64,000 bases of DNA from Liolophura sinensis (Eukaryota > Mollusca > Polyplacophora > Chitonida > Chitonidae), in the NCBI RefSeq assembly GCF_032854445.1, contig NC_088295.1, forward strand, positions 11,583,385 to 11,647,384. The letters are read 5' to 3'. The notes beneath the pieces were generated by a model. The model searched no databases. It saw only the letters and a program-made list of their open reading frames with translations, and was not told the DNA's origin. Shown one piece after another: positions 2,852 to 26,800 of this stretch. The position numbers were made by a program, and so were the translations under genes. Numbering within the stretch: position 1 is the stretch's first letter; each line of letters opens with the position of its first letter.

Positions 2852-5800
2852 CTGTATGGAAAAAAGAATCAATATGATACTGCCATAACAGAACAGAATC
2901 TCCACACAGCACGGCTGTCAGGTTTATGGTGTTGTATCATTGAACAGCAAGACAAACACACTGTCACAACGGGCTCACACTTACATGATCAGCCAATGTA
3001 CTGTCCTCTAGACAGTGGACTGAAGGTAACACATTCAATTAAGTCTTAAGAAAGACATGATTCTCTACATAATGCCTTCCTGAACTCAAAAAACACAGTT
3101 ATTTCTAAAACCAGGTCCATACATATTCATAAATGTAAAAAATATTCAATAACATATTTAAAAGATGATTTTATTTTTTCAGAGATCATTTAGTCACTTT
3201 AGTCCTTAGTGATAGTGTTTAATGTACACAAGAGGGGCCAGTGTTATGGCCGCAAGAAATTGGGGATAAACCACCAACCTGTGGTAAGTTAATCACAAAC
3301 TTTCTCTCACATAACCTACAGACCTACACAGCATTGATTGAAGACAAGTGAATATACAGGGTTCTTCTCAATGGCTACTTAATATGTACAAAATCTATTT
3401 CGCTCGACCCAGAATCACAATCCTGGGAAAACGGTGATTAGCAATTATCTCTCAGTCAAATTCTTATCTCCAATATTATCCATGAATAATTAATGTACAT
3501 TACATAACGCTGCTATTTCCAGTGGTTAAACATTGAAAGCCTTATAAATGCGTGGCTGCTGGTAGCTGTAGTACACTTCGCTGACTTCATAGAGGTTGAA
3601 TATCAGCTAGCTCACACACAATGGCTCGGAGCAAACCAAGAGCTCCTAATCCCTCCATACAAAATGTACTTACATTTACATGTAGCTGGAGAGCTGGAAA
3701 GCTAGGTCCCTCCCTCACATATAAGACATATACACTATACAGTTCAGTTAACTGAAAGTGCAACCCCATATTAGGTATACATTACATTTTCTATAGGTCA
3801 CATTAACATTTTTACCCAATGATATGTGTTAACCTGGTGTAAAATTTTAAAAGAAAGTGAACACTAAGCTTCAGCTACAAAATAAACCACGTTATTATTA
3901 AACAAATAATGCTATCACCAAAAAACATTAGCAAAGTATCAACTTAATGATATGACTTCTCCATGATAACCTTAGCAAAACAATGACATACAAAGACTAC
4001 TGTTCAGAGTGGTTAGTATTAACAATGTAACTGCAGGAACAAATGTGTGACAACACAGCCTGTGAGATCACACCACAACCTGTGAGATCACACCACAACC
4101 TATGAGATCACACCACAGCCTGTGAGATCACACCACAGCCTGTGAGATCACACCAAAACCTGTGAGTTACGGGTAATTTGTACCTGTGCAAATGCTTACC
4201 TGAGAGGCAGAGGTCGCTTCCTCCGGTTTCTTGTCTTCCCGGATACGCAGGAACCTGGGAAATCTCAATGAAATGCCCTTTTCTGGATCAACCTAGGATA
4301 ACAAACCAGCAGGAAATATTATCTAAGAGTTTTAATTTTACTATTGGCTGTTAACATTTTTAAAACCAGTGAATATATATCAGCATATTTACAGTAGGTA
4401 ACTCACTACTGAATACATTGTTTTAGCAGGTTTACAGCAAGTATCCCACAACACTTTAGTACCAAATTTACAGTCAGTGACTCTACAGTTTGCTAACCTG
4501 CTTACAGTCAGTGACTCACGACAGTTTGCTAACCTGTTTACAGTCAGTAACTCACTACAGTTTGTTAACCTGTTTACAGTCAGTGGCTCACGACAGTTTG
4601 CTAACCTGTTTACAGTCATTAACTCACTACAGTTTGTTAACCTGTTTACAGTCAGTGACTCACAACAGTTTGCTAACCTGTTTAGAGTCAGTAACTCACT
4701 ACAGTTTGTTAACCTGTTTAATTTACTCAAAATAGTTAATTTGGCATCTGTAAGTATGCTTATACTGTATATAGCCTTTAAATAACTCAGTGTATACAGT
4801 TTGAAACAGGCAGATGATACTCACCAGTGTATACAGTTAGCATACAGTAGGCAGATGTAAATCAACAGTGTTTACACTTAACACACAAAAGGAAGACATA
4901 ACTCATCAGTGTATACAGTTAGCATACAACAGGCAGATGTAACTCACCAGTGTATACAGTTAGCATACAGCAGGCACATGTAACTCACCAGCGTATGCAG
5001 TTAGCATACAGCAGGCAGATGTAACTCACCAGCGTATGCAGTTAGCACACAGCAGGCAGATGTAACTCACTTGTGTGTAGAGTTAGCATACAGCAGGCAC
5101 ATATAACCCATCAGTGTATACAGTTAGCATACAGCAGGCACATGTAACTCACCTGTGTATACAGTTAGCATACAGCAGGCACATATAACTCACCAGCATA
5201 TGCAGTTAGCATACAGCAGGCACATGTAACTCACCTGTGTATACAGTTAGCATACAGCAGGCACATGTAACTCACCAGCGTATGCAGTTAGCATACAGCA
5301 GGCACATGTAACTCACCTGTGTGTAGAGTTAGCATACAGCAGGCACATATGACCCATCAGTGTATACAGTTAGCATACAGCAGGCACATGTAACTCACCA
5401 GCGTAAGCAGTTAGCATACAGCAGGCACATGTAACTCACCTGTGTATGCAGTTAGCATACAGTAGGCACATGTAACTCACCAGTGTATGCAGTTAGCATA
5501 CAGCAGGCACATGTAACTCACCAGCGTATGCAGTTAGCATACAGCAGGCACATGTAACTCACCAGCGTATGCAGTTAGCATACAGCAGGCAGATGTAACT
5601 CACCAGTGTATGCAGTTAGCATACAGCAGGCACATGAAACTCACCAGTGTATACAGTTAGCATACAGCAGGCACATGTAACTCACCAGCGTATGTAGTTA
5701 GCATACAGCAGGCACATGTAACTCACCAGTGTATACAGTTAGCATACAGCAGGCACATGTAACTCACCAGCGTATGCAGTTAGCATACAGCAGGCACATG

Positions 5801-23800: not shown

Positions 23801-26800
23801 GGACACCTGTACAACGCTTACCTGTCGCCTGAGCTACAGCTCACATCAGAATGGTTCACATCCCATGGTCTATATTAGAGTCTCCTATGTAGGACTGTGG
23901 CACCTGTACAACACTTACCCTTGGCCTGAGCTACAGCTCTCATCAGAATGGTTCACATCCCATGGTCTATATTAGAGTCTCCTATGTAGGACTGTGGCAC
24001 CTGTACAACGCTTACCTGTCGCCTGAGTTACAGCTCTCATCAGAATGGTTTCACCCATCCCATGGTCTATATTAGAGTCTCCTATGTAAGACTGTGGACA
24101 CCTGTACAACGCTTACCTGTCGCCTGAGCTACAGCTCTCATCAGAATGGTTTCACCCATCCCATGGTCTATATTACAGTCTCCTATGTAGGACTGTGAAC
24201 ACCTGAACAACGCTTACCTGTCGCCTGAGCCACAGCTCTCATTAGGATGGTTTCACCCAGCCCTAGCTCTACACCATCATAAGCTGGTGCCAGTTTGTTA
24301 AGGCAGAGATACACACAGGGCAATAAATCATCTGGAGACAGCACTATCACAGAGCGGAAGAAATTGCACAAAATCTCTATCATCTTTAGTCTGAAAGAAG
24401 GAAAGAAAAACTTGCAATTACAAAAATCCTGTGACCGGGTATCCCGTGGCCAAATTGCATTATCCTAATTCTTCTAATTTTTGGGACACATGGTCTGCTC
24501 ATTTTAGCCAATATATATGTAATTCTAGCAGGAATACTGAGTTTCTTTTTTCTCACATAGTTAGACCATCTAATAAACATCATACTCATATCTTTTCTTT
24601 TTCAAAAGACTGGTAAAGAAACGTAATATTTTACTTTCAGCACTACTAATATCTGTCCCAAAAATGAGAAGAATTAGGGTATACAGGTGTGTATATCTGA
24701 TGTACACCTGCTTTGTACATGTATATGTATACTGTATAATGTCAACAAAAAAACAGTTTTGTAATGAAAACAGATGTCTCCCACGTCCAAAAGTCAAGCA
24801 GTCCTAAGGTCACAAAAGGGTGATCACAGACCCATCACTTGCAAAAAGCAGCAAGCGCAGTGCCTGGCCCCTCGCAACATGCGCCCTGCCCCTCTAGAGG
24901 GCCTTAAATATCTGCCCTGCCCCTCGAGGGAAGGGTTGATAAGCTGTATTAAATAGTTGCCCCTGTCCCGCAGTAGTAATCCTATCTGCCTGTTGTCAAC
25001 TGTACCCGGTGCTGAAAATCCACAGTCATAACATTGCTTTATAATCAAGCACTGCATGTGTGTTTTAAGCTCATCGAGGTGTAGTTAACTGATACCTAAT
25101 TTAAGCCGTCAGTGCTAAATTTTTGACCCCTGGCCACCATAATTTTATTATTAAATCAATTCTTGCTTGGCGGTTAGGTGTCAAAAGCATCCACCATAGT
25201 TGTTTGATAAATAAAGAGCAGTGACGCTCACTGGAGAATCATCTCAATTACACCAATGGGTAAACCCTTTAGAAATGTACCTATCACAGCCTCGTCTTCA
25301 TTACTTTCATTTATCCACACCATCAGTAAAGTCGTAGGCTCAATGTTTAAAATTAAAACTAGAACAGGCTGCAGATTACCACAAATGATTAAGATAAGGC
25401 AAGTTACAGTAATTTTGATTTGTGGACTTTAAGCTCAGCTGTTTAGAGCTGAAAGATAAACCCCACCCTTTCGGGCCAGAGCCGGTTTTGTTTCGATTCC
25501 ATTTTTTTGTTGCGAAAACACTCATACTTATAAATTATTATTGTTTTCAAGTCAGATACCTGATACGAACATAATACTGGAATACAGGATGCATGCACAA
25601 AGACATATAGCAAACAGGTGTAATATCTTAGACAATTTCAAGCCAAAGTTATCTTATTTAGTCACATACCACAGCTAGCTCTAGAACTAATGTCTGTAAT
25701 TTAACATCAGCGGTAAAGCTCTTTTCATTAGTTATTTCTTCAAGGCTTTAAATAAGGCCCCTGCAATGATCAGTAGTTTTATTAATTATTTGTTTGTCCA
25801 TTTAGGTTAATACCCTAAAGCAGGAAACATTTGCTGTGAAAACGCACTTGGCAATTCTTCCATTTTTGGGACATAAGTCCGCTAACCGCTAACCAGTACA
25901 CACTGTAATTGTAATTGGGATAAACATTTTTGCCCCATGGTTAATACATCCCATGAACCACATATCAATGTCTTTACTCTTCTGAAATATTGAGAATTGC
26001 GACTTTCAGTTTTAATTACTTCCCATTAATATGTCCTCAGAAATAGAAGAATTACACCACACAAATGCACAGCTGGGTGTTGAGTTGGCTATTTTTACTG
26101 CTAACTATCTTTAGAATATTTCTAAATCACATTCATTCTTAAACCCGCGAGCAGAAAATAGTGCCCTTTAAAGCTATTATTCGTCCTAGCAAGTGCCTCT
26201 TTTGGAAAAATGCCACCCTGCCCCAGTTTGTATGAAGCTAAGGGTCTAAATTTGACCCGCTCGGCATATGAATAAACACACATACTTTCACACGTTTATT
26301 AATGTCTCCAAAGTCAAAACACTGCCCAATGGGTGAAGGAGAGAATAAACAAACCCCAAAAGTTCATCTGCTGTTACTACACTAATGAAGCTCCAAACTA
26401 ATTTTACTCCTTGATTCTGGAGATATAACTCGGACAAGGTTATTGTCTGTCACAATGTTCAAAACATGGCTTAACAGACGGAACAAAAAGAGAAACAAAC
26501 CCCAACTGTTGATCAGTTCCCAAATGTAATGAAGCTAAACTATAAAATACATGTGTCTTCCCCAAACTTGTTGAGGGGAGATTTGATAATGGTAAGACTG
26601 TGTTCGAAAAGAAATATAAAGAAAAGAAAATATTCAAGTGGTGGGTTTGTTCATGTAAGTGTTAAAGCCTTACCTGGCGGAAACATTTTCTATTTCCTCA
26701 AATGTTCTAGCCAAGGCCAAATATGGTACTCTGAAAAATACAAGTTTGTGGGACATTAAACATTGGAGCATGTACATGTGCACAAACAAGTGCAGTCACT

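What the first reader, a model, noticed from the sequence alone, without database searches (positions are those of the whole stretch)
4790..24218. Pattern: minisatellites seeded at 5' splice sites in three introns of one gene
Three independent arrays (units 41, 116 and 100 bp, unrelated to each other) all begin at the donor side of an exon; none found here begins at an acceptor. A fourth array in the same intron as the 41-bp one (36 bp, 4465-4725) also contains GTGAGTTAC. Inferred: a recurrent process, such as replication slippage or repair at a transcription-linked structure near exon-intron junctions, may produce donor-bearing repeats. If genome-wide, this would be an under-described route to intronic minisatellites.
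Basis: inference. Interest (0 to 1): 0.8.

Follow-up and report, generated by a model that had tools for sequence, protein, structure and literature searches.

The report
Tandem repeats copied across splice junctions
In a chiton DNA-repair gene, short stretches spanning the end of an exon have been copied in tandem, up to about 33 times, into the next intron; this kind of repeat is already described in amphioxus, recurs in other genes of this mollusc at both ends of exons, and gives the splicing machinery rows of look-alike cut sites.

Summary
The gene is DNA ligase 1 of the chiton Liolophura japonica. In three introns the working 5' splice site is itself copy 1 of a minisatellite that runs on into the intron (units 41, 116 and 100 bp); the junction sequence recurs inside each array. 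A fourth array starts 33 bp after another donor. No acceptor of this gene is involved.

Such arrays recur in the genome: after exons of OGDH, POLR3A, SMAD, GH31, fucosidase and others. They are not donor-only. In 50 protein-kinase exons, picked without regard to repeats, arrays span 3 donors and 2 acceptors; acceptor-spanning arrays are mirror images, with the working acceptor as the last copy. Junction-spanning arrays were 5 where repeat density predicts about 1.6, a weak excess. Motif retrieval favours donors (13 of 27 against 2 of 27), but this can reflect tolerance: acceptors need more intact sequence. No link to transcription was shown.

The kind is known: "mirages" in amphioxus Adh3 and globin genes, at both exon ends. 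New here are the chiton, a prevalence estimate (5 of 100 junctions, interval 2-11%) and a lead that copied donors vary most at G+1.

The parts
4807..6187 (-). 41-bp minisatellite, about 33 copies; its first, diverged copy contains the working donor of the exon 6185-6382; 29 further donors of similar strength
6183..6184 (-). working donor GT (CTG|GTGAGT) of the LIG1 exon ending ...AAAGL
6185..6382 (-). LIG1 exon [10 protein letters not shown]...HTAAAGL (ligase C-terminal domain)
22575..22994 (-). 115/116-bp minisatellite, about 3.3 copies; the junction (about 13 exon bases + 14 intron bases) recurs in the most distal copy
22980..22981 (-). working donor GT (GAG|GTGAGG)
22982..23046 (-). LIG1 exon ...[21 protein letters not shown]
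23350..24263 (-). 100-bp minisatellite, about 9 copies; each unit copies about 45-54 bp of exon end plus the donor; matches in the genome only at this locus
24216..24217 (-). working donor GT (CAG|GTAAGC)
24218..24390 (-). LIG1 exon [11 protein letters not shown]...MRAVAQAT
4467..4720 (-). 36-bp minisatellite in the same intron as the 41-bp one; 2 of about 7 units hold GTGAGTTAC; not at a junction; weakly similar to the 41-bp unit
4050..4166 (-). 20-bp minisatellite starting 33 bp downstream of the donor at 4199 (exon 4200-4292); does not contain the junction
4200..4292 (-). LIG1 exon [31 protein letters not shown]

Best explanation
These are junction-spanning minisatellites of the kind called 'mirages' in amphioxus. 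A short segment that happened to cover the exon-intron boundary was duplicated in tandem (inferred: slippage or unequal exchange, as for other minisatellites) and then expanded within the intron. A duplication that spans a donor leaves the original exon end and donor in front of the new copy, so the gene still works as long as the spliceosome keeps using the exon-proximal copy; at an acceptor the picture is mirrored and the exon-proximal copy is the last one. Selection therefore lets arrays grow outward into the intron from either junction but not into the exon. In this genome, where about 12.5% of the window is tandem repeat, such arrays span about 5% of junctions. Shown: anatomy, membership of the working junction in the array, recurrence in other genes, both exon ends, single-locus origin of the 100-bp unit. 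Inferred: duplication mechanism, use of the exon-proximal site, and the selective filter. Donors may be somewhat favoured because the intron side of a donor needs about 6 intact bases whereas an acceptor needs a branch point, a pyrimidine tract and AG (general knowledge).
For: The working junction recurs inside the array in 19 of the 21 cases tested, among them all three LIG1 arrays (the exceptions are the 20-bp LIG1 array and L005; LIG1-41 and L110 are near the shuffle limit). The 100-bp unit has 9 matches in the genome, all in this array, 100% to 85% identity. Donor-motif arrays abut exons confirmed by tools in 7 of 27 cases: SNF2 domain, fucosidase, Fe-hydrogenase-like, GH31, MH2, OGDH 6e-21, RPC1 2.8e-8; six more were read by eye. 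Of 50 kinase exons, 3 donors and 2 acceptors are spanned. Reading past the working donor meets an in-frame stop before the next strong copied donor in 13 of the 17 arrays that have one and could be measured, so use of a downstream copy would usually break the protein. Amphioxus mirages show the same anatomy at both exon ends, and RT-PCR there suggested regular splicing (PMC3087553, passages).
Against: Junction-spanning arrays exceed the density expectation (5 against 1.56, P = 0.02; or 0.82 and P = 0.0016 with the density of the same flanks; 5 of 11 arrays spanning, P = 0.007), and in LIG1 itself donors exceed random placement (4 against 0.82, P = 0.005), so a seeding bias at junctions may exist on top of tolerance. 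Coverage by arrays does not drop towards donors (0.077 in the first 50 bp, 0.062 at 250-300 bp, 48 donors) but does towards acceptors (0.043 against 0.128, 47 acceptors). No transcript data were available, so use of the exon-proximal donor is not shown.
Confidence: 0.8

Rival explanations
1. Donors (or junctions in general) are mutational hot spots: a process tied to the splice site, such as slippage at CAG|GTRAGT or at a transcription-linked structure, starts minisatellites there.
For: Survey arrays on the donor side start at the junction more often than uniform placement predicts (3 of 5 spanning, P = 0.016; 4 of 5 within 45 bp, P = 0.013). Triple-motif hits are 1552 for CWGGTRAGT against 466 reversed, while single hits are 30,789 against 16,174. 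Donor arrays at exons outnumber acceptor arrays at exons 13 of 27 to 2 of 27.
Against: The fraction of donor-motif arrays at true donors (48%) equals the share of the motif in excess over its reverse (44-47%). CAGGTAAGT alone is only mildly enriched (265 triple hits against 158 reversed; single counts for this subset were not taken). Acceptors are spanned too (2 of 50 against 3 of 50). Hits count copies, not arrays, and numbers of arrays are small.
Confidence: 0.25
2. The arrays are kept because they work: rows of donors bind U1 snRNP and protect long introns from premature polyadenylation or tune splicing.
For: Many copies keep strong donors: 29 in LIG1-41, 67 in L013, 36 in L012.
Against: Donor columns are not clearly better conserved than the rest of the unit (mean difference +0.006 for GT, +0.011 for the hexamer over 18 arrays), and G+1 is the least conserved of nine motif columns (0.851 mean over 15 arrays), although most of these arrays were found by demanding the intact motif. 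Acceptor arrays and arrays without donors occur as well.
Confidence: 0.05
3. Chance: in a minisatellite-rich genome three overlaps in one gene are expected and mean nothing.
For: Array coverage is 12.5% of the window and 18.5% of 2768-27170; 3 of 16 donors at a 13% rate has P = 0.35.
Against: Arrays cannot extend far into exons, so the proper expectation is lower (0.82 donors). The arrays contain the junction sequence itself, which is more than proximity.
Confidence: 0.3
4. Assembly artefact: collapsed or expanded repeats placed at exon ends.
For: None seen; minisatellites are error-prone in assemblies (general knowledge).
Against: The assembly is HiFi-based (PMC11068029, passages); copies differ from each other by about 5-15%, and exon and intron flanks are continuous in the sequence read.
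Confidence: 0.02

Closest known systems
'Mirage' minisatellites of amphioxus (Adh3; globins BflGb6 and BflGb9), PMC3087553 (passages read); the 2002 Adh3 paper (Nucl Acids Res 30:2871) seen only as a reference
   Same: Minisatellite-like tandem duplications that span an exon-intron boundary, at the 3' (BflGb9) and 5' (BflGb6) end of an exon, with splice signals in many units, unit lengths 10-160 bp, boundary copies left out of homogenisation
   Different: A mollusc, not a cephalochordate; several genes and more copies (33 in LIG1, 94 in L013) than the 3-6 of BflGb6; prevalence estimated; splicing not tested here
Human IFI-6-16 (G1P3/IFI6) minisatellite providing multiple splice donor sites, Nucl Acids Res 1995 23:1854 (seen only as a title in the reference list of PMC2572611)
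   Same: A minisatellite whose units carry splice donors
   Different: By its title several donors are used there; here use of one is expected but untested; that paper was not read
Variable internal tandem repeats in human segmental duplications, PMC2812944 (passages)
   Same: Tandem repeats at exon-intron boundaries that may form novel introns or activate cryptic splice sites
   Different: About half lie in coding sequence, about 4 units of 30 bp, in recent paralogues
Intron gain by tandem genomic duplication of AG/GT sites (PMC4974935, PMC3443670: search listing only; Rogers model as cited in PMC3087553)
   Same: Tandem duplication that copies splice signals
   Different: There a new intron arises inside an exon; here the introns lie between conserved LIG1 exons and the copies stay intronic

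Membership tests
Mirage minisatellites | Tandem repeat unit spans an exon-intron boundary | tested here: met
   Junction sequence recurs in all three LIG1 arrays
Mirage minisatellites | Both 5' and 3' exon boundaries can be affected | tested here: met
   Not in LIG1, but L035, L069, L079, L081 at acceptors
Mirage minisatellites | Local origin from the gene's own boundary | tested here: met
   100-bp unit matched only here in 609 Mb; the 41- and 116-bp units were not searched
Mirage minisatellites | Regular splicing is not disturbed | not testable with these tools
   No transcripts held
Mirage minisatellites | Length polymorphism between haplotypes | not testable with these tools
   One assembly only
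   3 donors and 2 acceptors of 50 exons spanned
   Searches point different ways

The most novel reading that the evidence does not exclude
Exon-intron junctions are preferred birth sites of minisatellites in animals as distant as chitons and amphioxus, and the copied splice sites are then selectively silenced: in several large arrays the first intron base (G+1) is by far the most variable donor position while T+2, A+4, G+5 and T+6 stay nearly intact (four of the five clearest arrays), as if decoy donors are being switched off one by one while the exon-proximal donor is kept.
Probability: 0.25. Interest if true: 0.7.

Novelty: new member of a known kind. Interest (0 to 1): 0.45.

Why it matters
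It suggests that boundary-spanning minisatellites are not a cephalochordate oddity but common in a mollusc, at a measurable rate of about 5% of junctions. Each such intron is a natural experiment in splice-site choice: up to 67 donors of similar strength, tens of bases apart, of which as a rule only the first gives a normal protein. Comparing chitons, or reading RNA-seq, would tell how the spliceosome picks the exon-proximal copy, how often it slips, and whether decoys are selected away. It also gives material for the idea that new introns and alternative exons arise from such arrays.

Tried and rejected
Donor-only seeding: rejected as a general rule by the exon survey (2 acceptors among 5 spanned junctions). 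Functional U1 arrays: not supported by column conservation. Dispersed origin of the units: the 100-bp unit is local. The acceptor triple pattern (468 hits against 55 reversed) looked like strong acceptor enrichment, but 76 of the 100 listed places come from one dispersed 53-bp repeat family or from one array whose acceptor motif is fused to a GTATGT donor (C1:2078153). The 53-bp family was set aside; the fused array was kept in the acceptor set (3' flank L037). The first placement test used too small a margin and no exon rule and counted 1 donor; it was redone with 45 bp and exon avoidance. For OGDH (L014) the decoy count failed and is not used. Motif-based sets assume that the reversed motif is a fair background, which is uncertain, above all for T-rich acceptor motifs. 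Weak Pfam matches in acceptor flanks (L056 0.0021, L057 0.05, L058 0.024) lie below the family cut-offs and were taken as chance; the fucosidase, tetraspanin and E1_dh matches are below their cut-offs too.

Rows dropped: donor arrays, 32 fetched, 27 counted: L002, L009, L039, L054 dropped because the 5' edge lay outside the stretch, L051 as a segmental copy of L050. Acceptor arrays, 29 distinct (the fused one through L037), 27 counted: L030 and L059 dropped because the 3' edge lay outside or at the end of the stretch; two listed C1 arrays (87054278, 91797247), the C2 and C3 arrays and the 53-bp family were not fetched. Control arrays: 12, 24 edges; edges of L018, L019 and L020 lie too near the stretch end to judge; L023 may abut a coding stretch. 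The kinase survey took 50 of the 136 listed matches, picked by hand as mostly exon-sized, without looking at repeats. The 15 arrays of the G+1 test were picked by hand from those with ten or more copies.
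Full report
WHERE IT IS. The window is G000:C1:11583385-11647384 of a 609,464,459-base genome in 632 contigs. The published Liolophura japonica assembly has 632 scaffolds, 609,495,693 bases and a longest scaffold of 96,433,062 bases, exactly the length of C1; scaffolds of 60,359,117, 58,388,612 and 25,057,479 bases match C7, C8 and C4 (passages of PMC11068029). The totals differ by 31 kb and C6 by 3.7 kb from scaffold_2, so the held copy is slightly edited. The organism is thus taken to be this chiton (Mollusca, Polyplacophora).

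THE GENE. Exon ORFs on the minus strand match DNA ligase N, middle and C-terminal domains in 7 of 8 tested and DNA ligase 1 in the PDB (one ORF). Fourteen exons of the catalytic region were placed from 24.39 kb down to the stop near 2766, and one presumed N-terminal exon at 46.6-46.9 kb; two more short ones are indicated near 27.16 and 26.73 kb.

THE ARRAYS. One search gives the arrays, the sequence. In each of three introns the junction itself is a copy of the unit: the stretch -20 to +30 around the working donor recurs across the junction in the array with 22/24, 25/27 and 47/50 identical bases for the 41-, 116- and 100-bp arrays (1, 0 and 0 of 300 shuffles as good). The amount of exon carried differs: 3, about 13 and about 45-54 bases, as expected if duplication breakpoints fall anywhere around the donor. 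The 20-bp array at 4050-4166 starts 33 bp below a fourth donor without copying it. The 36-bp array at 4467-4720 is not at a junction; 2 of its 7 units hold GTGAGTTAC and its unit resembles the 41-bp unit weakly (9 of 1000 shuffles as good). The 100-bp unit matches nothing else in the genome.

IS IT GENOME-WIDE? Whole-genome motif triples (three copies of a 9-base motif 16-46 bases apart) were used as a net for arrays carrying a donor. CWGGTRAGT gave 1552 hits, its reverse 466; single occurrences are 30,789 and 16,174. Hits count copies, and only the first 100 places of a search are listed. Flanks of 32 donor-motif arrays were read: the 15 distinct arrays listed (C1, 0-7 Mb), six clusters, eleven new ones. 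In 27 the 5' edge was captured and distinct. In 13 a coding exon ends at that edge: L005, L006, L012, L013, L014, L015, L041, L044, L046, L047, L048, L052, L053. Tools confirm seven: SNF2 domain, alpha-L-fucosidase, Fe-hydrogenase-like, GH31, MH2, 2-oxoglutarate dehydrogenase and RPC1; deoC for L047 is weak (0.0023). Searches for L005, L041, L048, L015 and L052 gave no supporting match; polycystin-, KATNIP- and ARFGEF-like readings are recalled, and L015 and L052 rest on open frame and splice signals alone. The junction itself recurs in 12 of these 13 (L005 is the exception). Twelve arrays carrying the reversed motif showed at most one possible exon among 24 edges, a few of which could not be judged.

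WHAT THE NULL SAYS. Because the excess over the reversed motif is 44-47% of all CWGGTRAGT sites, random seeding alone would put about that share of donor-motif arrays at real donors; 48% were (P = 0.40-0.55). So this retrieval shows that arrays at donors survive about as well as arrays elsewhere; it does not show that donors attract them. The same net for acceptors (TTTYTNCAGR, 468 triple hits against 55; TTTNCAGG, 1582 against 756) gave 27 usable arrays, of which 2 end at a real exon start: L035 (sodium:dicarboxylate symporter, 2e-12) and L069 (tetraspanin, 0.0013). Single TTTYTNCAGR sites number 56,285 against 30,785 reversed, an excess of 45%, so 2 of 27 is far below random seeding if that background is fair (P = 3e-5; 0.02 if only 25% are real). 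Against the donors it is P = 0.0018, or 0.14 for the 7 tool-confirmed. An acceptor needs a longer intact intron stretch, so tolerance alone would give this asymmetry.

SURVEY. Fifty protein-kinase matches (of 136 listed) were fetched with 400 bp on each side and scanned. Arrays span 3 donors (L090, L099, L113) and 2 acceptors (L079, L081); one more starts 15 bp after a donor (L110) and one ends 58 bp before an acceptor (L107). Layouts are shown: at donors the working site is the first copy, at acceptors the last. The rate is 5 of 100 junctions (interval 1.6-11.3%). Expected from the density of the window with up to 50 bp of exon overlap: 1.56, P = 0.02. Donor-side arrays begin at the junction in 3 of 5 cases (P = 0.016), acceptor-side arrays in 2 of 6 (P = 0.17). 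Coverage is level towards donors and falls towards acceptors. In LIG1 exon-avoiding placement gives 0.82 donors and 0.87 acceptors against 4 and 0 seen (P = 0.005, post hoc). Together: a modest junction excess is likely, donor exclusivity is not.

SPLICE-SITE CHOICE. Arrays hold many donors about as strong as the working one by a simple weight matrix: 29 in LIG1-41, 67 in L013, 43 in L015, 36 in L012, 20 in L006. In 13 of 17 arrays reading past the working donor meets a stop before the next strong copy; in L012, L013, L046 and L052 it does not. Donor columns as a group are hardly better conserved than the rest of the unit (18 arrays). In 15 hand-picked arrays of ten or more copies G+1 has the lowest mean identity of nine motif columns (0.851; others 0.898-0.950) and is the lowest column in 5; against T+2, G+5 and G-1 P is 0.025, 0.046 and 0.020. 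In L054, L041 and L003 G+1 is fully kept. The commonest replacement differs between arrays (T, A, C). This would fit loss of decoy donors, but variants spread by duplication and copies are not independent; it is a lead only. Competition between neighbouring donors is known to be regulated, for example by SRSF1 and hnRNP A1 (PMC5585400, passages).

LITERATURE. Minisatellite-like tandem duplications spanning intron-exon boundaries were named 'mirages' in amphioxus Adh3 and described in two globin genes, at both exon ends, with RT-PCR suggesting regular splicing (PMC3087553, passages). The original 2002 paper is not held. A human minisatellite giving multiple splice donors was reported in 1995 (title seen in a reference list). 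Ten searches listed no report of this in molluscs; only named molluscs, it found nothing, and the library lacks most subscription journals.

VERDICT. Real, well formed and recurrent in this genome; a new member, in a new phylum as far as these searches go, of a known kind. The donor-only and transcription-linked reading is not established.

Noticed in passing
window 39978-40562, + strand (a further collagen-like ORF at 38862-39140 read by eye): Collagen-C1q ORF (C1q 7e-23, collagen 2e-10) lying between LIG1 exons on the opposite strand, i.e. nested in a LIG1 intron if the 46.6-46.9 kb exon is LIG1.
   Followed up: no
window 53875-55068, - strand: Rhodopsin-family GPCR ORF of 398 aa (7tm_1, 5e-41), perhaps an opsin.
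   Followed up: no
window 2242-2714: A 29/31-bp array starts about 50 bp after the LIG1 stop codon.
   Followed up: no
L006, L009, L012, L013, L015 (arrays): First intron base of the copied donor is the most variable donor column, replaced mainly by T, A or C in different arrays, while in four of the five the other intron-side donor bases are nearly invariant.
   Followed up: partly
G000:C1:2078153-2083989 (L036, L037): Large array whose 54-bp unit holds an acceptor fused to a donor (TTTCTGCAG|GTATGT), like a recursive splice site; no coding exon recognised at the ends read.
   Followed up: partly
C1:16815639, 16829849, 23633208, 37079129, 51857585, 71751799, 78294842; C3:5070057, 6450879: Dispersed family with an internal 53-bp tandem repeat beginning TTTCTGCAGGTGTAAAGTACAACATCC, perhaps a mobile element.
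   Followed up: no
L028 (C1:2185300-2187700): A 34-bp array starts about 60 bp downstream of what reads by eye as a tetraspanin-like exon end on the other strand, without containing the donor, as with the 20-bp array of LIG1.
   Followed up: no
C1 0-7 Mb: Donor-motif arrays are several times denser here than the whole-genome hit count predicts (15 arrays in 7 Mb); 4 of the 12 control arrays lie in the first 10 Mb too.
   Followed up: no
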